IMG/VR virus record: IMGVR_UViG_3300033148_001509
Coordinates: 1-40,242 of that record
Length of the DNA: 40,242 bases
Source: a virus
Reading direction: 5' to 3' (one strand)
Part shown: positions 1 through 35,148 of the stretch, in pieces
Layout: each line of letters starts with the position of its first letter
How positions within the stretch are numbered: the first letter of the stretch is position 1
The notes under the pieces: model-generated
What the model was told of the DNA's origin: nothing
Seen by the model: the letters and a program-made list of their open reading frames with translations, nothing else
The model's database searches: none
Program-made: the position numbers and the translations under genes

Positions 1-42
1 AATTTTCTTTACGGCGCGAGCTGGATGTTCTACGGAGAATGA
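1..42 (+). CDS. C-terminal part of a 15-residue peptide gene that starts at the window's other end
   Basis: Reading from base 1 gives 13 codons ending in TGA at 40-42, and that stop overlaps the next ATG. The last bases of the window (ATGAGT from 40237) are in frame with base 1, so the joined ORF would encode MSNFLYGASWMFYGE. It has AAGGAGG upstream, and its start and stop both overlap neighbouring genes. This is the usual arrangement of this operon and suggests a circular or permuted genome. If the window is not circular, this is the tail of a longer unseen gene. No function is recognised. Confidence 0.55.
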   Translation, partial: NFLYGASWMFYGE

Positions 43-269
43 ATGACTCAAAGGGACGTGAACTAGCCAGATACCAGAAGTTATATACTGACCATGTTGA
101 GCAAGTTCAATCCCTCACCTCAGAGCGAGACCGGTTGCGCGAGGCTTTGAAGTTCCTATGCAGAGTTAAGGATCATAAAGACGAACATGGAAAGGACAGG
201 TGGTACACGCAGGCACAGCCAGCAGCATGGGAGCAAGCCCGTAAAGCCCTAGCCGATATAAAGGAGTGA
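39..269 (+). CDS. Small coiled-coil hypothetical protein (76 aa)
   Basis: The start ATG overlaps the preceding stop and has GGAG just upstream. The product is charged and probably mostly helical: residues about 8-40 carry a heptad-like pattern rich in Leu, Gln and Arg. The C-terminal part (PAAWEQARKALADI) looks like the short phage proteins found near early operons. No enzyme motif is visible. It lies in the rightward operon of small early proteins, and function is unknown. Confidence 0.7.
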   Translation: MNDSKGRELARYQKLYTDHVEQVQSLTSERDRLREALKFLCRVKDHKDEHGKDRWYTQAQPAAWEQARKALADIKE

Positions 270-6428: not shown

Positions 6429-7629
6429 TCGACTGCCTCCGCTTTAGTTCCTGTAAAACTTGAGGGCGCGTCATATTATTGGCTTTCATTGTTGCCCGAA
6501 TGTCTGATTCTGTAGCATCTCCCATCATTTCCTTTAATTCTGCTTTTTTCTTTTTCAGCCAATCAGCCTGAGTATTTCCCTGACCCAAAAATATAGCCTG
6601 TTCTTCGTAATAATTAGCAAGTTTTTCTTTTGCGGCTATCGTTTCATTTGTCCATTGGATTAATGCATCACCTTCAAGACCTATAGGCAAGGCAACAGAT
6701 TTAGCCAGGTCAAGCTCACCCTTTGACAACGCGCCAAAAGTAACCGCGCCAACCACATCAAGTCCGAGCCTGCGCTGTAATTGTTCCAGTTTTATGGTTT
6801 CCGCTTTAATACTTGGGAATAATGAGATTATCGGGCCAGTATTTGCCCCTTGACTGATTAATGGCGTCACTTCCCTTAAGTTGGTAATATTTTGCCGAAT
6901 CTTCTCAACCATGCCGAAGGCGTTATCAGCAGTTTTGGATGCTTTCTCAACATCCTTGACCCTTTTCGCTGTTTGAACGGTAACATCAGCACGTTCCTGT
7001 ATTTTTGCTTTGGCTTGGTCTCTTGCTTGCTGGAGTATATCGAGTCTTGCTTGGCCGGTGACTTCCGCGCCAGAAGGATCGGTAACAATCGTCTCGCCTG
7101 TTGGGTGAACTTGGATGGTTGCACCGGTATCTAGTATTTCAGTTTTAGCAGATGCAAGCCCCGTTTTTTGGAGTGTAATAATTCCTAGAGTCTTACCCAT
7201 CTGAATACTACTATCCAGCAACTGCTGAGCGCCGGTAAAATCACCAGATTCCATCTTGCTGATAAACAGGTCGGTATCTTCTGTGTTAACAGGCTGGCCG
7301 GTTTTCTGGCCCTCTGCTATTAATTGAGTGCGCCTACTCCGAGCAAAGTTCAGCCTATCTTCATTTGTCGGTAACGCATTAAGACTGACCGCAGCATTAG
7401 CAATAGATGTGGCTCTGCTCCTATCTCGCTGGTTTTGTATCTGTTGTGATGTTGGTACAGCAGCCTCAGCAGCGCCCGTCTGCGCCTCAAGCAATCTCTG
7501 CCTGATAGGGGATTCACGCCGATCTTGGCGTATCTTATCGAACCTTTCCGCGTTTAGCAGGATATTAGAGAACGTCTGACCAACATCAGGGACTTTAACG
7601 CCAAGGGAAATTCTAGGATCTATGGCCAC
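6415..7629 (-). CDS. Putative DNA-ejection virion protein, 404 aa
   Basis: Mostly helical, Gln/Ala-rich protein with long coiled-coil-like stretches (about residues 200-265), resembling internal ejection proteins of P22-like phages (gp20 position). Start is GTG at 7629, overlapping the TAG of the upstream HNH gene; its Shine-Dalgarno (GGAGGG) lies inside the last codons of that HNH gene. No catalytic motif visible. Function inferred from order: S74 protein, HNH, this, the 579-residue protein, tailspike. Confidence 0.6.
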   Translation of the reverse strand: MAIDPRISLGVKVPDVGQTFSNILLNAERFDKIRQDRRESPIRQRLLEAQTGAAEAAVPTSQQIQNQRDRSRATSIANAAVSLNALPTNEDRLNFARSRRTQLIAEGQKTGQPVNTEDTDLFISKMESGDFTGAQQLLDSSIQMGKTLGIITLQKTGLASAKTEILDTGATIQVHPTGETIVTDPSGAEVTGQARLDILQQARDQAKAKIQERADVTVQTAKRVKDVEKASKTADNAFGMVEKIRQNITNLREVTPLISQGANTGPIISLFPSIKAETIKLEQLQRRLGLDVVGAVTFGALSKGELDLAKSVALPIGLEGDALIQWTNETIAAKEKLANYYEEQAIFLGQGNTQADWLKKKKAELKEMMGDATESDIRATMKANNMTRPQVLQELKRRQSSGGA

Positions 7630-8192
7630 TATACTGCCCTCCGTTTGACTAATGGCTTCCCGTGATTCTTATGGTATCCATATTTTATTTCGGCAGATTT
7701 TCTACAGCAAACAGCTTCAAACCAGTCTGAAAATACGCCCAAATGCGTATGTCTACTAGCTTCTGTTGCTATTTTCGCCCTCCATCTTCCCGTTTCTTTT
7801 ATGAGGGATATGCCTAGGATCCCATGCGGCGTATCCTTTCTAATGGATATATTTTTTGAATTTTCTTTTCCTGATACTGATCTGATATTAGCCCATGAGT
7901 TATCATCTCTAATGCCATTTATATGGTCGATTTCATCGTTGGGCATCTCGCCAGTCATATACAGCCACGCAAGCCTGTGAAGAGGCATTCTTACGCCAAG
8001 CACATCCGTCACTAAATATCCGCTTTTGTCTTTTGATTTAAGAATCTTTCCGCTATATCTGGAATAAAATGCGGCGCATGAGCCGTCACATTTGAACCAT
8101 TTGCGATCCCTTCTTTTGACGGTGACTAACCCAGAAAACTTTTCATAATCAAAGAATTCTCTAGCGATTTTCTGAGTCATCTCAAGAGCCAT
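7629..8192 (-). CDS. HNH homing endonuclease with AP2-type DNA-binding domain
   Basis: 187 residues. The HNH core is at about 88-102 (IDHINGIRDDNSWANIR), and the C-terminal part (about 120-180: GILGISLIKETGRWRAKI, then FSDWFEAVCCRKSAEIKYG) matches the AP2/ERF-like domain often found with phage HNH enzymes. It is wedged between two ejection genes, overlapping the upstream stop by 11 bases, and its last codons form the ribosome site of the next gene. Related to the HNH gene at 18546-19055 over its whole length. Confidence 0.9.
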   Translation of the reverse strand: MALEMTQKIAREFFDYEKFSGLVTVKRRDRKWFKCDGSCAAFYSRYSGKILKSKDKSGYLVTDVLGVRMPLHRLAWLYMTGEMPNDEIDHINGIRDDNSWANIRSVSGKENSKNISIRKDTPHGILGISLIKETGRWRAKIATEASRHTHLGVFSDWFEAVCCRKSAEIKYGYHKNHGKPLVKRRAV

Positions 8193-11444: not shown

Positions 11445-12862
11445 CGGCCTGCCAACTTCAAATCAATCGCTGCTGAATAAATATTATAAGCAACGGGGTC
11501 GGAGGTGGTTAATCTTACAATCATATCGTAGAAACTTTTAACACTGAACCACTCGGCCCTGATGTTAAACTCCCCCTGTCGGCCTATTCGCATCCATGTA
11601 CCTGTATCCCACGTATTGCCACCATCATAAGAGGCTTCGACCATTATTTTAGGATCATCACCCTGACCAGTAACAAGACCAACACCTGTCTCCATGATAA
11701 ATTCCATGCGGCTCATCTGGACGCGCTTACCTTTCTGGCCTAGAATATCTCCATTTATCGACCCCATAACCCTGCGTCTGCGCCATGTTTCCCCGGCTTG
11801 GTCGTAAGTGTCAAAATCTAATTCGTATAATTGACCGTCACTTCTATCGCCTATCAGGACTTTGGAATATACCTCAAGCACTGATCCTGCATTGTATCGT
11901 CCGTCTGTAACCCCCTCAGACAGCTCAAACCAGCCATTTTGACCCAAAGACTCGTTCAAGCACCATGTTTTATCCTCTGTCGGAAAAGTAATCATGTAAA
12001 CGGTCATATCATCTATGGTAAACACCTCGCCAAAGGCGTCTGAGACAGTCGTATAGCCCTGTATAGCCCCTGAGATGGCCGATGTACTCATCACCTCCTC
12101 TTGACCCCCTCTAGCCCTGTAAACCTGTGAGTCAGAGCCTAGCCAATAGACAAAATCCCTCGTGTTGGCTACGGAATGTTTAGCAATAAGCCCTACATTT
12201 ATATTTTGCCCTTCAACACGCTCAATAGGAGGCGTTCCAACGCCTGAATTCCACCAAATAAAACAAGTTCGCTTGCCAAATCGGTATATTGTTTGGTCAA
12301 AGACGTAATCTCTTACTAAATCATCTCCATTAGCTTCCTCGTTGATTGCATTTAACCCCGAAGCTGTTGAGCCGTCTCCCACTGTGCTTAGTACGGATAA
12401 CTGAGGAAAGGTGTATAGGAATTGATTATTTATATAGGCAACTGATAAAGCCCCGACAATATCAGGGTCTGTCACAGTTGTTACTAAATTAGTCGAATTG
12501 CTGTATTGACTTACAAAGCCGTTAGCAACGATAAACATATTCACGCCATCATCAGCAAATATACATTTATCGGTTCCCGATATTGATCCTCTACTGGTGT
12601 GAGCACCAAGTATCGAGACCTCGTATAAGGTTGTACCTATTACCCTGTAGGCAACCTCAGCCATCTGGTGCTGACCTCGATCAGCGGCAGCAGTAACGGA
12701 GCCTAGTAACGATTGTCCGGGGAATGATTTAATTACATATTGATCCTTTCCGGATTCAACTAGTTGATGGTAGAAATTGCGGGTTTCCTGCTGTGAAAGC
12801 GGCCTTGACCTGTCCTGATAGCTAGGCCCAGCAATATTAACAGGGAAGGTCTGATAAGGCAT
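11441..12862 (-). CDS. Packaged-DNA stabilisation protein, P22 gp10-like
   Basis: 473 residues, the same size as P22 gp10 (472). The N-terminus (PVNIAGPSYQDRSRPLSQQ, ETRNFYHQ) and the beta-propeller-like body with repeated short strands, plus the C-terminal LTTSDPVAYNIYSAAIDL, fit the tail-hub family that closes the portal after packaging. It lies directly after the adaptor gene, overlapping by one base (TAATG), exactly where gp10 is expected. Confidence 0.8.
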   Translation of the reverse strand: MPYQTFPVNIAGPSYQDRSRPLSQQETRNFYHQLVESGKDQYVIKSFPGQSLLGSVTAAADRGQHQMAEVAYRVIGTTLYEVSILGAHTSRGSISGTDKCIFADDGVNMFIVANGFVSQYSNSTNLVTTVTDPDIVGALSVAYINNQFLYTFPQLSVLSTVGDGSTASGLNAINEEANGDDLVRDYVFDQTIYRFGKRTCFIWWNSGVGTPPIERVEGQNINVGLIAKHSVANTRDFVYWLGSDSQVYRARGGQEEVMSTSAISGAIQGYTTVSDAFGEVFTIDDMTVYMITFPTEDKTWCLNESLGQNGWFELSEGVTDGRYNAGSVLEVYSKVLIGDRSDGQLYELDFDTYDQAGETWRRRRVMGSINGDILGQKGKRVQMSRMEFIMETGVGLVTGQGDDPKIMVEASYDGGNTWDTGTWMRIGRQGEFNIRAEWFSVKSFYDMIVRLTTSDPVAYNIYSAAIDLKLAGR

Positions 12863-16510: not shown

Positions 16511-18558
16511 TCAATCGCTCCCGGTACTTGTTGCTCAAATTTCAGACTCATTTCGGTAAGTTGCGCTGCCAACTCCTTCCTAAACTGATCATTCTCTTGA
16601 GCTGTCTCGATGTTGAATTGGCGCTGATCTTCGGCAAGCTGCTGCATTTTGATACTTGCGTCTGCCTGAGCCTTGACCAGAGTAGCTTGAGCCTTGATCT
16701 GCTCTGCCTCTGCCAATGGATTCTGAACCTGCTGTAATTGCTCTTGGAGCTGCTTGACAAGGTTGGTCAGTATTTCATTCTGAGCAAGGGTCAGGTCTTC
16801 AGGTTTCTCTGGGTCATTAAAGAACTCTGCTATTTCTGGAAGACCGGAGGCTGTAACCATGTTCTTCAGCACATTATACCGCTTGACCTCATCGGTCATT
16901 GGCGAACCGGCTGTTTGTAATTGAGCATGTAGAGACCACAAAGCCGTTAGCGTCTGGAGAATCTTCTCATCATCACCAGCGCCCAGACCAACCTTACTGA
17001 CTACATGGTGCCTGAACTGCCAGTCAGCAGGATTAACAGACAACTCGCTTCCAAGTATTTCAATCTCAATCTTGGAGTTCTGGAAGTTAGCATCTAGCCA
17101 AGCCACGCCTTCATATATCTGCCTGAAGCCTGTCTCGGCCATAACTCTAGCAACAAGCTCTACCTTAGCCCCAGATGCGTCCTCTATCCCTGTGAATCGT
17201 GTAGCCGTCTCTTCTCCCAGCTTGTCTGAATCAAGCCCCTGAGACGCCAAGAGGGAGCCTGTAGACTGCGCTCTGGCCTGATCCCAGTACTGAACCACCT
17301 GAAGTGCTTGTGTACCGATATAAGGAACAACAATTGGCATTAAATCATTAGCTATCGGGGTGTTCTTAGTTGATCTGACCACCCCATTAGGACGCATTAC
17401 TAGAAGATCGTCCATATTTACGTTGGTATTAGCCCCCATTCTGGGCTTATTAACTGCATAAATATTATCCTGAACGCCTCGAAGGATTGCGGTCTTAATC
17501 AAAGCCGTAGGCGCGGTTATCTCTGCTCTGCTCCGACCGATAGCCTTGTGCGGCATCATGATCGAACTCATCATGCCATAGGGTACGTGATTGAAGACAT
17601 CGTTAATCAATACGACTTCGCCGCCACGCATGATATGTCTGCGCTCTGGTATTCCGTCTCCGTCATAATCTACCCGTGGGTATAGGTCTTCGATTAAAAC
17701 TTCCTCACTTGCCCAGCTATCCGAGGCTGTATAGTCCTCTGACCCACCCTCATCAGCGTCTCGGATAGTCTTTAATCTGGTATTTTCCTGCTCTGAATTG
17801 GCCCCAGCAAGAGGTATTCTTGAAATATCCTCCTTCTTAAATCCCATAGCTAGAAGCTTGCCGCGAGTCATTAGGGTGACATCACCAACCAAATCTGCGT
17901 CATCTTTATCGGTGGCATTCTTGGTCATTCGGAATGATTCAAGCGGAACGTCAACGATCATGACGTTCTTGGTGGTGCGCTCAACCTTAAAGACTACGGT
18001 ATTCTCACCCTCATCCCCGGTATCGTCGGTCTCTTCACGGACTATATCAACGCTTTCAACGTTTGGTTCGCCCTCTAAATCTGATTGTAGAACTGCTAGC
18101 TCTTCATCACTTAGCCCTGTTTTCTTATGTTCTTCAACCTCTGTATTCTCATCAATAAAGTACTTAACAACGGATAATTTCTGAATCTCAGCATTCTTAA
18201 TGAATCCATGAAGAACTTGGAATGACCAAGGCTGCTCTCTGACCTGCCAGTTAACGTATTTTGTCTTGTCTTCGGCTTCCTGCTTATCCTCATCTTTGGA
18301 GGTGATTGGTTTGAATTTAAGTATCTCACCCGGCCCTAAGAAGATACGAGCAAGGGAGGGCATGTCTGCCTCTACAACATCCATCACATCTTGAGATATT
18401 ACGCTGGATTGCTCTGCTACCTCGTCTCCGTATGGATTTCCAAGATATCTGTCTAGTAAGCACTCATTCTCTTTGATGAATGTAGAATTATTCCCAGTCG
18501 CATCATGGGTCAATAAATCCAGCTCTGTAATCAGAGTAGATTCGCTCATTGTGGGCAT
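16507..18558 (-). CDS. Portal protein
   Basis: 683 residues, close to P22-type portals (725). The N-terminus contains LLDRYLGNPYGDE and VVEADMPSLARIFLGPGE; the middle has IPERRHIMRGGEVVLINDV and FNHVPYGMMSSIMMPHKAIG. The C-terminal 120 residues are Gln-rich coiled coil, like the P22 barrel. It forms the dodecameric ring for DNA entry. Start ATG 18558 has GGAGAA upstream, a site that lies in the last codons of the HNH gene. Confidence 0.88.
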   Translation of the reverse strand: MPTMSESTLITELDLLTHDATGNNSTFIKENECLLDRYLGNPYGDEVAEQSSVISQDVMDVVEADMPSLARIFLGPGEILKFKPITSKDEDKQEAEDKTKYVNWQVREQPWSFQVLHGFIKNAEIQKLSVVKYFIDENTEVEEHKKTGLSDEELAVLQSDLEGEPNVESVDIVREETDDTGDEGENTVVFKVERTTKNVMIVDVPLESFRMTKNATDKDDADLVGDVTLMTRGKLLAMGFKKEDISRIPLAGANSEQENTRLKTIRDADEGGSEDYTASDSWASEEVLIEDLYPRVDYDGDGIPERRHIMRGGEVVLINDVFNHVPYGMMSSIMMPHKAIGRSRAEITAPTALIKTAILRGVQDNIYAVNKPRMGANTNVNMDDLLVMRPNGVVRSTKNTPIANDLMPIVVPYIGTQALQVVQYWDQARAQSTGSLLASQGLDSDKLGEETATRFTGIEDASGAKVELVARVMAETGFRQIYEGVAWLDANFQNSKIEIEILGSELSVNPADWQFRHHVVSKVGLGAGDDEKILQTLTALWSLHAQLQTAGSPMTDEVKRYNVLKNMVTASGLPEIAEFFNDPEKPEDLTLAQNEILTNLVKQLQEQLQQVQNPLAEAEQIKAQATLVKAQADASIKMQQLAEDQRQFNIETAQENDQFRKELAAQLTEMSLKFEQQVPGAIE

Positions 18559-19055
18559 AAAAATTCTCCATGAGTCTGGTGAAATCCGTACTTATTGTCG
18601 GCAGACTTTCTGCAACAGACCGCGTCAAAGAAATCATTGAAAAGCCCTAAATGAACCACCTTATAATTTACCTTAACCTGAGCAGCCCATTTTTTTGATG
18701 CCTTATGCCAAACCACTCCCACAACACCAGACTTGTTGTTTTTCGGCGCACTTTGATTTTTGCAATTATCTATATGGGTAATATGCCGCAAATTCTCCCA
18801 CCGATTATCTGAAGTAATATGGTTTATGTGATCCACATGCTTGGGTGGGAAAACGCCTTCCATGTACAAAAAAGCAAGACGATGAGACCTGTGTGACATG
18901 TAATTTATCCCAATCCTATGATACCCGCTAGCGTTAATACACCCTGCTTCCTTTCCTATCAAATTAGATTTTCTGTTAGTCAGCCAAGTAAATATCCCCG
19001 TGCTTGGGTCGTAATGCAAAATCTTTTTTAATTCTTCTTGGGTTAAGTCGGTCAT
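18546..19055 (-). CDS. HNH homing endonuclease with AP2-type domain
   Basis: 169 residues. After an N-terminal LHYDPSTGIFTWLTNR module, the HNH core is at about 73-90 (KHVDHINHITSDNRWENLR). The C-terminal part (SGVVGVVWHKASKKWAAQV, then VHLGLFNDFFDAVCCRKSAD) is an AP2-like DNA-binding domain. It is inserted between large terminase and portal and overlaps both by 4-13 bases. Paralogous to the gene at 7629-8192. Confidence 0.92.
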   Translation of the reverse strand: MTDLTQEELKKILHYDPSTGIFTWLTNRKSNLIGKEAGCINASGYHRIGINYMSHRSHRLAFLYMEGVFPPKHVDHINHITSDNRWENLRHITHIDNCKNQSAPKNNKSGVVGVVWHKASKKWAAQVKVNYKVVHLGLFNDFFDAVCCRKSADNKYGFHQTHGEFLCPQ

Positions 19056-29467: not shown

Positions 29468-29772
29468 CTTGATAGTATCCCACCAGCAATACCGCGCTTC
29501 AAAGTCTCCACTTCAGCATCCAGAAGCGGCCTTTCCTGCTCTGGTAGCCCCTCGTAGGGAGCCATAAACACCTTTAGAACCTTCATCAGGTGGTATCGGT
29601 TCATCCTGCTCTGGCTGGGCTTTAAGGGTTTGTCAGTCATCACCGATAAGCGACGAACTGAGGTTACCCAATATTCCAGAGAGTATCTGCTGGCTTTAAC
29701 CAAGGCTCTGGCCGTTGGCTTGGCCTTGCTTGTGCCTAGCTGTATATCTACGCGGTTTTTAGGCATCATCAT
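29464..29772 (-). CDS. Basic hypothetical protein (102 aa)
   Basis: Starts at one of three tandem ATGs; its AAGGAG site lies inside the last codons of the upstream HNH gene. Basic, helical: ALVKASRYSLEYWVTSVRRL and QSRMNRYHLMKVLKVFMAPY. It is coupled to the loader-like gene (ATGA), which suggests a shared replication task. No known family. Confidence 0.6.
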   Translation of the reverse strand: MMMPKNRVDIQLGTSKAKPTARALVKASRYSLEYWVTSVRRLSVMTDKPLKPSQSRMNRYHLMKVLKVFMAPYEGLPEQERPLLDAEVETLKRGIAGGILSR

Positions 29773-30526
29773 TACGCTCCTTAAAGTTTCTGTTTACGCC
29801 GCTCGCTCTTTTGCATGTTTTACAATACCTATGCCCTCGATGATCGATGGCTAGATTGTCGCCGCTAAATGGATGTCCGCGCTTACAGTGTGTTTTCTTC
29901 TTGTTATTGTGACCATTTTCAAGTCTAGGAGTATTTAATGCTTGCTCTATACTCCATCCAGAACAGTCTAACCGGCCTCGCAGTGTGCTATAAGCCAACC
30001 CAATCTTGGCCGCCCACTGGGACATAGTCATTCTTTCACCGTTATATTCGATAATCCGTGAATTCCCTTTATTGTTCGATTGCTGTTCTATCGTTGCCCA
30101 TCGGCAGTTTTCCGGCTCATAATTACCATCGTTATTAATACGATCTACTGAAAGGCCGTCTGGGGCCACCCCCATATCTTCAAGAAAATTCTCAAAACTA
30201 TTTTTCCACCTATCGCAAACTGTAATTCCTCTACCCCCGTATCTGGGGTGACTTTTATCCGCACATCTCGATTTAATTCCTTTCCATATTGTGTACTCAT
30301 AGGTTTTTGACATCCCATGAGTCGTTTTAATGGCAATCCTTATTTCATCATGCAGACATCCGCAAGACCTGACCTCTCCAAGCTTAACCAAAGAACCTGC
30401 TATATCTTTGATATTCCCGCAGTCGCACTGGAATGACCAAACCCTGCTACTATTGTAATTTACTCCAACGTCCTTAATTCCAACAAGCCGCCCATATCTT
30501 TTTCCCGTAAGGTCTATCCTCTTCAT
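29759..30526 (-). CDS. HNH-type homing endonuclease with zinc modules (255 aa)
   Basis: N-terminal DLTGKRYGRLVGIKDVG and CDCGN with CGC form a zinc module common in phage HNH-associated proteins. The core RYGGRGITVCDRW, then SVDRINNDGNYEPENCRWAT, is the nuclease part (often annotated HNH or AP2-like). A repeat DNA-binding helix follows (MSQWAAKIGLAYSTLRGRL). The C-terminus has CKRGHPFSG and CKTCKR. It overlaps both neighbours, and its last codons give the next gene its ribosome site. Confidence 0.85.
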   Translation of the reverse strand: MKRIDLTGKRYGRLVGIKDVGVNYNSSRVWSFQCDCGNIKDIAGSLVKLGEVRSCGCLHDEIRIAIKTTHGMSKTYEYTIWKGIKSRCADKSHPRYGGRGITVCDRWKNSFENFLEDMGVAPDGLSVDRINNDGNYEPENCRWATIEQQSNNKGNSRIIEYNGERMTMSQWAAKIGLAYSTLRGRLDCSGWSIEQALNTPRLENGHNNKKKTHCKRGHPFSGDNLAIDHRGHRYCKTCKRASGVNRNFKERNDDA

Positions 30527-31633: not shown

Positions 31634-32269
31634 CTAGGGGTTAATCTGTACCATCGTTAAATTCCCCGTATGAAATGCTCCGGTGTCGATAAAATTCATG
31701 TTCGCAATTGTTAGCGGTTCGTCAAGTATCGTGTGGCCGTGATAAGTCTTGCTCACGCCCTCTATAGCCTCGCTGTTAGGTTGATAAACCGTCTCCCTAG
31801 CCCATAGCATTACTTGAACGTCTCGCTCTGTAGGAGCCTCTGTGTCGGCCCAATCATGGCTTGGCGCTTGAGAGTGGCAGATACCGACATCACCATTTCT
31901 AGTCTCAACTGTGATAGAATATGGAAGTTCTCGGACTTTCTCACAAAGGTATTTCAATTCATCATTATCTTCACGAAGGAACCACCCGCCGCCATTCTGA
32001 ACCCAATGAGAACAAGCGCTGCCATCAAGGATAACTTTTAGCATCATATCCTCATGGTTGCCTTGTACTGGGTAAAACCAATCACTATTAATCAAATACA
32101 GGCAATCCATACTATCTGGCCCTCTATCTATCAAGTCTCCAACAGAGAAAAGACGGTCTGCCAGAAAATCAAACTCAACCTCTCTCAGCTTGCCTTGCAA
32201 TAACTCCATACATCCATGCAGGTCTCCAACTACAAAGTCCCTGCCATTTTCATTTATTCCATATTTCAT
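31634..32269 (-). CDS. Serine/threonine protein phosphatase-like metallophosphoesterase (NinI-type)
   Basis: The frame opens at 32308, but AAGGAG seven bases before ATG 32269 favours the shorter form (211 residues). The five metal-binding blocks are visible in order: GDLHG, GDLIDRGPDS, GNHE, the ICHSQAPSH region and YHGHT. These define PP2A-like phosphatases such as lambda NinI/PP. It would remove phosphates from proteins, with Mn or Fe at the site. With NinG it links this operon to the lambda nin region. Confidence 0.9.
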   Translation of the reverse strand: MKYGINENGRDFVVGDLHGCMELLQGKLREVEFDFLADRLFSVGDLIDRGPDSMDCLYLINSDWFYPVQGNHEDMMLKVILDGSACSHWVQNGGGWFLREDNDELKYLCEKVRELPYSITVETRNGDVGICHSQAPSHDWADTEAPTERDVQVMLWARETVYQPNSEAIEGVSKTYHGHTILDEPLTIANMNFIDTGAFHTGNLTMVQINP

Positions 32270-32307
32270 CTTCATTCTCCTTATACCCTTTGACTTTAGA
32301 TTGAACA

Positions 32308-32493
32308 CTAATCTTGCTCAAATCCCTTCTTAACGTAGCCACCTAAACTTTTAGTGCAGCCATAGAAATCTTGCATCATATTATCTACTTCTTCTGCGTA
32401 AGCAGGAGGCAATAAATCCTGAGTTATGGTTGTATAGGCAACAAATGCCAGCTCTAGGTTATGTATTCTTTTTTCAAGTTTTTCGATATCCAT
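32308..32493 (-). CDS. Small coiled-coil protein (61 aa)
   Basis: The frame is open from an ATG at 32523, but the ATG at 32493 has AAAGGA eight bases upstream. DIEKLEKRIHNLELAFVAYT is a short coiled coil, followed by an acidic, aromatic C-terminus with CTKSLGGYVKKG. Ends one base into the phosphatase frame. Unknown role. Confidence 0.6.
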   Translation of the reverse strand: MDIEKLEKRIHNLELAFVAYTTITQDLLPPAYAEEVDNMMQDFYGCTKSLGGYVKKGFEQD

Positions 32494-32591
32494 TTTTATA
32501 TCCTTTTTGGTTGCTTTAGACATAGTCCTACAAGGGTGGATAGCCTTTGACCTTTAGGCTTCCTGTTACCCATACCATATTACTTATAATC

Positions 32592-32749
32592 AAAAAAAGC
32601 ATTTAGAAGACAAGCCGTAGCAATTATTAATCGGATTTGAACCGATAACCTCTCGTTACGAGTTTGCTCTGCCATTGAGCTATAACAATCAAGATACGTC
32701 TATCTTACGTAGCGAACTACGCTCTACAACTTGTCATCTAAATACTCTT
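32592..32749 (-). ncRNA. Compact structured RNA: 22-bp closing helix, two hairpins and a tRNA-like domain, ending in T7
   Basis: Minus-strand RNA from about 32749. The arm 32724-32745 pairs with 32599-32620: 18 Watson-Crick pairs, three G-U pairs and one U-U mismatch; as a plus-strand RNA there would be four mismatches, so the minus strand is the folded one. Inside, almost without unpaired bases, lie a CGTAG-TTCG-CTACG hairpin (32708-32721), an AAGATA-GACG-TATCTT hairpin (32691-32706) and a cloverleaf (32622-32689). Seven T follow the helix directly (32592-32598), an intrinsic terminator. A TTAACA-N17-TATTAC promoter ends just before it. Lies in a 290-base gap between leftward genes. Function unknown. 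Confidence 0.75.
32622..32689 (-). tRNA. tRNA-like domain with truncated anticodon arm (probably not a translating tRNA)
   Basis: Minus strand. Acceptor ATTGTTA pairs with TAATAAT (seven pairs, one G-U); U8-A9; D arm GCTC-AATGGCA-GAGC; T arm ATCGG-TTCAAAT-CCGAT. The part between D and T arms is about 18 bases, three to four shorter than needed for a normal anticodon arm plus variable loop; the best local fold is CTCG-TAA-CGAG with a three-base loop, leaving AGGTT as variable region. No encoded CCA. It is best read as a tRNA mimic inside the larger RNA, or a decayed tRNA. Confidence 0.55.
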
Positions 32750-32755
32750 TCTGCC

Positions 32756-32784
32756 GTAATACTAATATCCCCGAAGGGTGTTAA
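32756..32784 (-). promoter_or_regulatory. Promoter of the structured RNA
   Basis: Minus strand TTAACA (32779-32784, five of six consensus bases) and TATTAC (32756-32761, four of six), 17 bases apart. The expected start, about 32749, is only a few bases before the closing helix. A small CCC-TTCG-GGG hairpin lies in the spacer. Confidence 0.5.
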
Positions 32785-32785
32785 C

Positions 32786-33037
32786 TTATTCAGCTCCGGC
32801 TGTAGTCTGCTTGGTTAATTTACGAATTTCTTCTAAATCTTTTTCCGATAGGTCGAGACTGTTATCTGGCTTAAAAGATTTGAAGCCACAGCTAGGACAT
32901 ACCTTGTCACCCCATTCTATGGGCCGATGCTCATAAAAATTCGACATTTGAGATTTAGTTTGGGTATGCCCACAGTTGGCACATTTATACTTTTGATCAT
33001 GCCATTCAGCGCAAAACCCGCATTTTATATCATTCAT
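32786..33037 (-). CDS. Small zinc-ribbon protein (83 aa)
   Basis: I start it at ATG 33037, with GAGG upstream, rather than the distal GTG. Four CxxC-type pairs: CGFC, CANCGH and CPSCGF, spaced as in a double zinc ribbon. The C-terminus is acidic and helical (LSEKDLEEIRKLTKQT). It may bind nucleic acid or a protein partner. Directly downstream of the RNA-rich gap. Confidence 0.7.
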   Translation of the reverse strand: MNDIKCGFCAEWHDQKYKCANCGHTQTKSQMSNFYEHRPIEWGDKVCPSCGFKSFKPDNSLDLSEKDLEEIRKLTKQTTAGAE

Positions 33038-33104
33038 AATTAACCTCGCATTCCACCCATTAACCTTCACCTACGTACACTCAGTAACACTCTGGTGCGT
33101 CAAC

Positions 33105-33335: not shown

Positions 33336-33608
33336 CCACTTTACTGCTGTATAAATATATTCAAAGCCACCCGAAGGCGCGTCTACTTGCTCTCTGATTA
33401 GATATCCTTTCCAAAACAATTTATTGAGTCTTGAGGATGCGTTCTGCGCGCTAATCCCCCACTTTTCTGCTAAACTGTTTGTCTGTATTCCTTTGCTTGC
33501 AAGCTTAATTATTTTCGCCTGAGAAGCAGATATCATTAAATCTTTAATTCTTGTGCGGTGCTTTAATATCGACGATCTTAATTCAGCATCTCTTTCAACA
33601 TCTCTCAT
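33330..33608 (-). CDS. Winged-helix DNA-binding protein (MarR-like, 92 aa)
   Basis: After a charged helix, residues about 30-85 form a winged helix: SQAKIIKLASKGIQTNSLA, EKWGISAQNASSRLNKLFWK, GYLIREQVD and an aromatic wing (GGFEYIYTAVKWK). Such short proteins act as phage regulators. AAGGAG lies upstream, within one of the two repeated hairpin pairs. A candidate regulator for promoters in this region; binding site unknown. Confidence 0.75.
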   Translation of the reverse strand: MRDVERDAELRSSILKHRTRIKDLMISASQAKIIKLASKGIQTNSLAEKWGISAQNASSRLNKLFWKGYLIREQVDAPSGGFEYIYTAVKWK

Positions 33609-33622
33609 CTCATCTCTCCTTC

Positions 33623-33662
33623 AGGTATGTTTAAGGGCTTACCTAGCCCTGTAATTAGGGCT
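33623..33662 (-). repeat. Tandem hairpin repeat, copy 1 (before the winged-helix gene)
   Basis: On the minus strand AGCCCT-loop-AGGGCT is followed by AGGTA-loop-TACCT and then AAGGAGAGATGAGATG. The stems match copy 2 (34472-34501) exactly at AGCCC/GGGCT and AGGTA/TACCT, while loop lengths differ (the second loop 12 bases here, three there). The first stem includes the stop codon of the upstream gene. Confidence 0.6.
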
Positions 33663-33966
33663 TGGCTTTTTTAATCATGTATTCGTCAAGCTTGCCCCAC
33701 AACTCTTGTGGTACAATATTATTTATGGCGCTTCTGAAAACAAGCTCACACATACGAGAGGATTCTTCTGCTTTCTCTTTATTTCGGATTGCTGTATTTA
33801 CAGCATCCAATAGCTCGATTCTTCCAGATTCAGCCTTTGTAAATAATTCAAGTAATGTTTGATTTTGATCTAAAGCCTCATCAAATAAATTCTCTTGTTC
33901 TCCGGGCGAGCATCTCCACCATTTATTAGGATCATCGTCAGCTAGGTAATCTTTTAGCGTCATCAC
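33655..33966 (-). CDS. Acidic helical hypothetical protein (103 aa)
   Basis: LKDYLADDDPNKWWRCSPGE then a helical middle (NLFDEALDQNQTLLELFTKA) and FRSAINNIVPQELWGKLDEY. Soluble. GGAG lies before ATGATG. Its transcription would have to pass, or start after, a strong minus-strand terminator at 33982-34048. Confidence 0.65.
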   Translation of the reverse strand: MMTLKDYLADDDPNKWWRCSPGEQENLFDEALDQNQTLLELFTKAESGRIELLDAVNTAIRNKEKAEESSRMCELVFRSAINNIVPQELWGKLDEYMIKKAKP

Positions 33967-33981
33967 TTTTCTCCGCTCAAT

Positions 33982-34048
33982 AAAAAACCCACTTAAGTGG
34001 TGGTGTTCACGCGAGGTACTGAATGAACCTCCACCACCCTTAAATGGG
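33982..34048 (-). terminator. Large minus-strand intrinsic terminator / attenuator
   Basis: Arm 34024-34048 pairs with 33988-34009 over about 20 pairs with a few bulges, one U-G pair only on the minus strand, and is followed by T6 (33982-33987). A competing inner hairpin GAGGT-ACCTC sits in the loop. It ends a short minus transcript starting near 34097 and lies just before the 103-residue gene, so it may work as an attenuator. It would also stop upstream operon transcription unless read-through occurs. Confidence 0.7.
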
Positions 34049-34812: not shown

Positions 34813-35118
34813 TTAGCTACCCTCTGGGGGGCTGTTTTCGTACTTCAAGCCGTTGTGCTGGAATCTAAAGTCTCCGCCGTGGGTGTGATTCACTGGAGCG
34901 TGAACATAAGCCCCGGCTGTAACCATAATGGTGCGTAGCTTCTTTAGCATCTTTCTATCGCTGTTGTTTTCTGCAAAGGTGTAAGCGTCATCAAGAGCAT
35001 CCACCAAATCATATTCATATTCGCGGTCTACTTCACAATAATAATTAAGCTCTCGCTTCACCTCTTTATCATCAAAGGCCAGAATAACCGCCATCACCCT
35101 TTCTCTATTCGTTGCCAT
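34813..35118 (-). CDS. Acidic hypothetical protein (101 aa)
   Basis: Second ATG chosen (AAGGAA eight bases upstream). EVKRELNYYCEVDREYEYDL and DDAYTFAENNSDRKMLKKLR, helical; C-terminus has HTHGG and ends KYENSPPEGS. Driven by the promoter at 35149-35177. May be fused to the next reading frame by frameshifting at its last codons. Confidence 0.65.
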   Translation of the reverse strand: MATNRERVMAVILAFDDKEVKRELNYYCEVDREYEYDLVDALDDAYTFAENNSDRKMLKKLRTIMVTAGAYVHAPVNHTHGGDFRFQHNGLKYENSPPEGS

Positions 35119-35148
35119 TCCCATTTCCTTTTCTTAACTTTCAAATAC

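What the first reader, a model, noticed from the sequence alone, without database searches (positions are those of the whole stretch)
32592..32749. Compact structured RNA containing a tRNA-like domain, with its own promoter and terminator
Seen: a 22-base inverted repeat (32599-32620 / 32724-32745) with 18 identical pairs; three of the four differences are G-U pairs in the minus-strand RNA only. The 103 bases inside are almost fully used by two tetraloop-type hairpins and a cloverleaf, and seven T follow the helix. A TTAACA-N17-TATTAC promoter starts the RNA a few bases before the helix. Known: strand-specific G-U pairs and a T tract indicate a transcribed RNA. Inference: a phage-coded functional RNA, for example a tRNA mimic, a polymerase-modifying (put-like) element or a stability element. 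I know of no family with this layout.
Basis: partly seen in the sequence, partly recalled or inferred. Interest (0 to 1): 0.85.

Follow-up and report, generated by a model that had tools for sequence, protein, structure and literature searches.

The report
Phage tRNA-mimic RNA without decoding arm
A phage genome carries a compact RNA whose ends zip into a 29-base-pair helix around two hairpins and a tRNA-shaped domain that has lost its decoding arm; it looks like a non-translating tRNA impostor, and comparably built RNAs, one group of them a new covarying family, turn up in other phages.

Summary
On the minus strand (32753-32591) a 29-bp helix with one mismatch encloses two 6-bp hairpins and a tRNA-like domain (Rfam tRNA, 45.9 bits, E 8e-7). 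No shuffle folds as well (z -5.9 to -6.5). No other inverted repeat in the window comes close, and it is the strongest large-interior one in about 1.4 Mb of related phage DNA. The tRNA domain keeps acceptor, D arm, T arm, variable loop and the elbow-contact bases. Its 'anticodon arm' is an 11-nt mini-hairpin and no CCA is encoded, so it should not decode; ARAGORN rejects it. It is not YrlA: no match at E<=1, no Ro gene, different (unpermuted) topology. A relative (G043) has another helix-closed tRNA-like RNA of unrelated sequence near the same phosphatase gene. A second family in Providencia/Pseudomonas phages (not in Rfam; 29 of 51 pairs compensated) has the order helix-H1-H2-tRNA-like-H3. 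Promoter and terminator are weak and unproven. Best guess: a stable non-coding RNA that presents a tRNA elbow/acceptor to a host tRNA-handling protein, as decoy or tether. The mechanism is untested and no sequence homologue of this exact RNA was found.

The parts
32724..32753 (-). 5' arm of closing helix P1 (29 pairs with one U-U mismatch)
   Evidence: pair probabilities 0.95-1.0; unique inverted repeat in the window
32591..32620 (-). 3' arm of closing helix P1, ending in the U7 tract 32592-32598
32707..32722 (-). hairpin H1, 6 bp, loop UUCG (closed by G-C)
   Evidence: pair probabilities 0.76-0.88
32691..32706 (-). hairpin H2, 6 bp, loop GACG
   Evidence: pair probabilities 0.81-0.99
32622..32690 (-). 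tRNA-like domain: acceptor 32690-32683 / 32629-32622 (8 bp, outermost pair G-U), no CCA
   Evidence: Rfam RF00005 45.9 bits; acceptor pairs 0.36-0.42 in the secondary-structure ensemble; ARAGORN gives no call
32666..32680 (-). D arm GCUC-AAUGGCA-GAGC with GG of the elbow
32652..32662 (-). mini-hairpin CUCG-UAA-CGAG in place of the 17-nt anticodon arm
   Evidence: CM alignment; pair probabilities about 0.5
32647..32651 (-). variable loop AGGUU (5 nt)
   Evidence: read from sequence and CM alignment
32630..32646 (-). T arm AUCGG-UUCAAAU-CCGAU
   Evidence: pair probabilities 0.66-0.99
32756..32784 (-). promoter-like TTAACA-N17-TATTAC; weak, unproven
   Evidence: coordinates; not accepted by the consensus scan

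Best explanation
SHOWN (computationally): a minus-strand RNA in a 262-nt gap of a densely coded phage region folds as a four-way junction of a long closing helix, H1, H2 and a tRNA-like domain. That domain keeps acceptor, D arm, T arm and the elbow contacts but cannot decode. INFERRED: it is a stable non-coding RNA of the phage. The closing helix seals both ends against exonucleases and holds the domain. The tRNA elbow plus acceptor is the working surface and is bound by a host protein that reads tRNAs outside the anticodon (for example RNase P, T-arm or D-loop modifying enzymes, or an exonuclease complex), which the RNA titrates or tethers during infection. In principle this is how YrlA works, but the architecture differs.
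For: Fold z -5.9 to -6.5 on the minus strand only. Rfam tRNA 45.9 bits although the anticodon arm is missing; all elbow-contact bases are present, which a drifting pseudogene would lose. Intergenic, with no co-directional ORF inside. A relative phage has a helix-closed tRNA-like RNA (z -6.9) near the same phosphatase gene and on the same strand, with unrelated arm sequences. The covarying family F1 shows the same order P1-H1-H2-tRNA-like, 29 of 51 pairs compensated, and its model matches the window end to end. L149 has a 25-bp helix around a tRNA-like core with no anticodon arm.
Against: No sequence homologue, hence no covariation for this exact RNA. No expression data. Acceptor pairing is only 0.36-0.42 in the energy model. 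Most of 50 related records have no tRNA-like element, though many are fragments. No partner protein identified. The F1 match is partly explained by the tRNA part, since ordinary tRNAs reach 30 bits.
Confidence: 0.45

Rival explanations
1. Processing and stability cassette: the tRNA-like domain and the long helix are cutting signals (RNase P/RNase Z on the tRNA part, RNase III on P1) that separate and stabilise segments of the early-operon mRNA.
For: Lies between co-directional small genes. Acceptor and T arm, which RNase P recognises (general knowledge), are kept. In relatives G004 and G021 odd tRNA-like elements also stand directly before a gene start.
Against: The tRNA 5' and 3' ends abut H2 and P1, so little single-stranded flank is left. 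Cleavage would dismantle the very structure that is so strongly maintained.
Confidence: 0.2
2. Cis-acting leader (antitermination, attenuation or put-like element) for the downstream genes.
For: F1 RNAs sit directly upstream of genes, and several have a boxA-like GCTCTTTAA about 100 nt before the motif.
Against: In the window no boxA-like site is near the RNA and the number of matches is at chance. P1 pairs with probability near 1 and no competing fold was seen. A U tract follows here, unlike F1.
Confidence: 0.17
3. A tRNA gene in decay, captured together with flanking hairpins.
For: BLAST finds only tRNA genes, several of them tRNA-Thr, over the D and T arms. Phages carry many odd tRNAs.
Against: Drift has hit only the anticodon arm, while the elbow bases and the 8-bp acceptor are intact. 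Decay does not create a 29-bp closing helix; ordinary tRNA loci rarely show one.
Confidence: 0.13
4. A bacterial Y RNA (YrlA) that binds a host Ro protein.
For: Same idea: stem of the two ends plus a tRNA mimic with D, T and acceptor arms, 90-150 nt (PMC8394870).
Against: No YrlA match at E<=1 in the window; no Ro/TROVE gene; YrlA is permuted, with the stem in the anticodon place, whereas this RNA has normal tRNA order.
Confidence: 0.03

Closest known systems
Bacterial Y RNA YrlA (Rfam RF02553)
   Same: ends form a long stem; tRNA-like D, T and acceptor arms; no anticodon loop; occurs in phages
   Different: YrlA is a permuted tRNA with the stem in the anticodon place and is defined by binding Ro; here the order is normal, the stem lies outside the acceptor, two hairpins are added, and there is no model match and no Ro gene
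tmRNA, tRNA-like domain
   Same: tRNA elbow and acceptor without a decoding arm
   Different: no CCA, no tag reading frame, not called by ARAGORN
Family F1 found here (Providencia, Pseudomonas and cyanophage-type phages; not in Rfam)
   Same: order P1, H1, H2, tRNA-like with altered anticodon arm, P1'
   Different: conserved H2 motif and an H3 after the tRNA part, no U tract, about 190 nt; common descent with the window RNA not shown
T4 stable RNA C (species 1)
   Same: phage small stable RNA ending in a T-arm-like hairpin
   Different: different fold; no cloverleaf found by the descriptor; lies in a tRNA cluster
GOLLD and ROOL RNAs
   Same: phage RNAs linked with tRNAs; GOLLD can carry tRNAs in its linker (PMC12286853)
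   Different: GOLLD often exceeds 800 nt; no Rfam match here

Membership tests
tRNA (functional, decoding) | acceptor, D arm, T arm and elbow bases | tested here: met
   RF00005 45.9 bits
tRNA (functional, decoding) | 17-nt anticodon arm with 7-nt loop | tested here: not met
   11-nt mini-hairpin; only 19 nt between D and T arms; ARAGORN negative
tRNA (functional, decoding) | CCA end | tested here: inconclusive
   not encoded; could only be added after 3' cleavage
YrlA / bacterial Y RNA | match to the RF02553 model | tested here: not met
   no match at E<=1 in the window
YrlA / bacterial Y RNA | permuted tRNA order, stem in the anticodon place | tested here: not met
   RF02553 consensus is stem, T arm, acceptor, D arm, stem; here the order is unpermuted
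YrlA / bacterial Y RNA | Ro (Rsr) gene nearby | tested here: not met
   no TROVE match in the record; the host is unknown
YrlA / bacterial Y RNA | binds Ro protein | not testable with these tools
   -
tmRNA | tRNA-like domain plus tag reading frame | tested here: not met
   ARAGORN finds no tmRNA; no Rfam tmRNA match
Family F1 (this work) | H2 motif GTGAYCGGGTTCCTAGGCCGRGTG | tested here: not met
   absent from the RNA
Family F1 (this work) | covariance model match beyond the tRNA part | tested here: inconclusive
   43.6 bits end to end versus up to 30 for ordinary tRNAs
Intrinsic terminator | GC-rich stem base followed by an unpaired U tract | tested here: inconclusive
   U7 present but pairs with a purine tract, stem base AU-rich; scan negative but limited to loops of 3-8
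put/nut-type antitermination site | boxA-like element nearby | tested here: not met
   no boxA-like match near the RNA; matches in the window at chance level

The most novel reading that the evidence does not exclude
Phages repeatedly build 'caged tRNA mimics': unpermuted tRNA-like domains without a normal decoding arm, locked inside a long closing helix with accessory hairpins. Helix sequence, hairpins and even the interior are exchanged while the tRNA elbow is kept. The window RNA, G043, L149 and the covarying family F1 would be separate examples of one class of non-coding RNAs aimed at the host's tRNA-handling machinery.
Probability: 0.4. Interest if true: 0.8.

Novelty: new variant of a known kind. 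Interest (0 to 1): 0.62.

Why it matters
Few tRNA-mimicking non-coding RNAs of bacteria are known (tmRNA and YrlA are the usual examples). A phage RNA with a full tRNA elbow and acceptor but no decoding arm points to a host protein that reads tRNA shape, and so to a possible unrecognised target of phage takeover. Standard annotation misses such genes because tRNA finders reject them. The F1 family found on the way has cultured hosts (Providencia, Pseudomonas) and strong covariation, so the idea can be tested at the bench even though the window phage is known only as a virus record.

Tried and rejected
DNA similarity of the locus to phages and plasmids: only tRNA genes or short stretches match. 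Loose pattern scans for shortened tRNAs: 13 and 119 stretches, most of them ordinary or odd tRNAs without a strong closing helix; the fixed-spacing scan gave 16, of which only L142 and L170 have a strong one, and these look like tRNA-cluster or YrlA-like loci. Neighbour gene 32786-33070: no relatives in viral contigs. F1 in E. coli genomes: none. T4 RNA C and D as relatives: only a T-arm resemblance in RNA C. YrlA: rejected. tRNA-derived attachment site: no integrase among the window proteins scanned, though not every ORF was scanned. Switch or attenuator: P1 pairs with probability near 1 and no competitor fold was seen. Literature searches found no description of this layout in the papers held. 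The primary YrlA papers were not held.

Full report
WHAT IS THERE. The window is a virus record of 40,242 bases, a podovirus-type phage: portal, terminase, head and head-closure families, terminase relatives among P22-type phages, NinG and NinI homologues. The element lies on the minus strand in a 262-nt gap (32524-32785) between a 94-aa ORF with cysteine pairs (32786-33070) and a 71-aa ORF (32308-32523), which is followed by a NinI-like phosphatase gene (31634-32308). Folded alone, 32592-32749(-) gives -56.4 kcal/mol, z -5.9, and 32585-32760(-) gives z -6.5, with no shuffle as good; the plus strand is weaker.

ANATOMY. P1 has 29 pairs (32753-32724 with 32620-32591), one U-U mismatch and five G-U pairs. 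Then come one unpaired A, hairpin H1 (32722-32707), hairpin H2 (32706-32691) and a tRNA-like domain (32690-32622), whose acceptor is separated from P1' by one G. Rfam's tRNA model matches 32689-32622 with 45.9 bits. The domain has UA at positions 8-9, a D arm GCUC-AAUGGCA-GAGC, a variable loop AGGUU and a T arm AUCGG-UUCAAAU-CCGAU. The bases for U8-A14, A15-U48, G18-U55, G19-C56 and U54-A58 are therefore all present (read from the alignment with standard tRNA numbering). Between D arm and T arm there are 19 nt, where most tRNA cores in the same scan have 22-23. The model alignment leaves an 11-nt hairpin CUCG-UAA-CGAG; reading it with a 7-nt loop would leave a 1-nt variable loop and a mismatched stem. 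ARAGORN does not call it. No CCA follows. It should not decode. In the energy model the acceptor pairs only at 0.36-0.42, against 0.95-1.0 for P1 and 0.76-0.99 for H1 and H2; tertiary contacts are not modelled.

CHANCE. In the window no other inverted repeat of this geometry reaches a score of 38; this one scores 57, and shuffled windows reach 35. In about 1.4 Mb of related phage DNA five entries with an interior of 60 nt or more score at least 48, this one highest; shuffles give none. It is the only repeat scoring 42 or more with a T arm inside (ungapped arms, so the bulged helix of G043 below was not scored).

RELATIVES BY GENOME. The RNA has no DNA match in annotated phages beyond tRNA genes and short stretches, none in the ten first relatives and none but chance-level ones in 50 terminase relatives. 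But G043 (terminase 67% identical) has at 34996-35137(-) an RNA closed by a helix of more than 20 bp that runs straight into a 7-bp tRNA acceptor. It has a D arm and two T-arm-like hairpins, z -6.9. Rfam's tRNA model accepts it with a 46-nt piece in the anticodon region (34.2 bits). It lies about 1 kb upstream of that phage's NinI homologue (33338-34003, 37.5% identical to the window's), on the same strand, and about 12 kb upstream of the terminase, as in the window. Its arms share no sequence with the window's. Other relatives carry other odd tRNA-like elements: G004 has two with rebuilt anticodon regions and CCA, and G021 has two overlapping weak ones. Most records have none, although many are fragments.

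RELATIVES BY ARCHITECTURE. A pattern scan for tRNA cores with shortened middles, followed by a test for an enclosing helix, gave a few loci that shuffles do not reproduce. L149 has a 25-bp P1 and no anticodon arm. L130 and L104 led to a family, F1, with the motif GTGAYCGGGTTCCTAGGCCGRGTG, in Providencia and Pseudomonas genomes, and with relatives in Pseudomonas phage Marin and Cyanophage Cy-LDV1. F1 folds as P1[H1, H2, tRNA-like with altered anticodon arm, H3]. In ten sequences 29 of 51 pairs have at least one sequence changed on both sides with the pair kept, in P1, acceptor, H1 and H3 alike. It is not in Rfam: only tRNA, and an unrelated Proteo-phage-1 hit elsewhere, are found in L130 and L104. 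A covariance model of F1 matches the window RNA end to end at 43.6 bits, aligning P1 with P1, H1 with H1 and the tRNA part with the tRNA part. Ordinary tRNAs reach up to 30 bits against the same model, so common descent is not established. In PseuP_224 the F1 closing helix (CGCATCGGGGTGTGATCTG) encloses a different interior without a tRNA core, so helix and interior look like exchangeable modules.

NOT A Y RNA. YrlA is the closest idea: a stem formed by the ends plus a tRNA-like module (PMC8394870). The RF02553 model runs stem, T arm, acceptor capped by a loop, D arm, stem: a permuted tRNA with the stem in the anticodon place. The window RNA keeps normal tRNA order, with the stem outside the acceptor. 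It gives no match to the model at E<=1 and there is no Ro gene in the record.

PROMOTER AND TERMINATOR. TTAACA-N17-TATTAC is at 32784-32756 but fails the consensus rule, and chance expects about three accepted sites in such a stretch. The U7 tract pairs with the 5' purine tract and the stem base is A+U-rich; no standard terminator is called, though the scan allows short loops only. An independent transcript is plausible but unproven; the RNA could equally be part of an early-operon transcript.

MECHANISM. Shown computationally: strand, fold, intact tRNA elbow bases and acceptor, missing decoding arm, recurrence of the layout. Inferred: stability from the closed ends; binding of a host factor that reads tRNA shape without the anticodon; decoy or tether action. 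I give this 0.45, a processing cassette 0.20, a cis-acting leader 0.17, a decaying tRNA gene 0.13 and a Y RNA 0.03.

VERDICT. A real structured RNA, most likely a non-decoding tRNA mimic. It is a new variant of a known kind (tRNA-mimicking non-coding RNAs), with a fair chance that it belongs to a wider, undescribed phage class.

Noticed in passing
L104, L130, L173-L185 (motif GTGAYCGGGTTCCTAGGCCGRGTG): A covarying phage RNA family (here F1) not in Rfam: P1[H1, H2, tRNA-like, H3] in Providencia, Pseudomonas and cyanophage-type phages, in several cases directly upstream of a gene.
   Followed up: partly
L187 (Pseudomonas phage PseuP_224), L186, L189: The F1 closing helix or H3 occurs around other interiors without a recognisable tRNA core, as if the helix were a shell with exchangeable content.
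   Followed up: partly
L173, L174, L176, L178, L182, L183, about 100 nt before the F1 motif: boxA-like GCTCTTTAA precedes several enteric F1 RNAs, which suggests a link with transcription antitermination.
   Followed up: no
L076 13650-13860 (same place as L164): Two overlapping YrlA-like permuted tRNA modules, sharing an unpermuted tRNA core between them, inside one 22-bp helix.
   Followed up: no
L070, L105, L063, L075, L091, L099, L117, L122 and others: Many viral contigs carry tRNA-like genes with acceptor, D and T arms but little or no anticodon arm.
   Followed up: partly
G004:C1 508-588(-) and 6790-6907(+); G021:C1 12853-12987(+): Relatives of the window phage carry odd tRNA-like elements with rebuilt or overlapping bodies, some with CCA and directly before a gene start.
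   Followed up: partly
L224 2721-2981, L256 2801-2956: Terminase relatives have other RNAs closed by 23-26-bp helices with 110-209-nt interiors that are not tRNA-like by Rfam (L224) or by eye (L256).
   Followed up: partly
window 7629-8192, 18546-19055, 29759-30526 (-): 29759-30526 is an HNH-type endonuclease; 7629-8192 and 18546-19055 look like the same kind by their sequence, so the phage is rich in homing-type genes.
   Followed up: no
G009:C1 ends: The major head gene is cut by the ends of the 41,901-base record (only part aligns, at 3-683), so that record is probably circular or permuted.
   Followed up: no
L020, minus strand 1-135 (plus strand 11765-11899): Near-perfect 42-bp inverted repeat at the very end of a contig, probably an assembly fold-back.
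   Followed up: no
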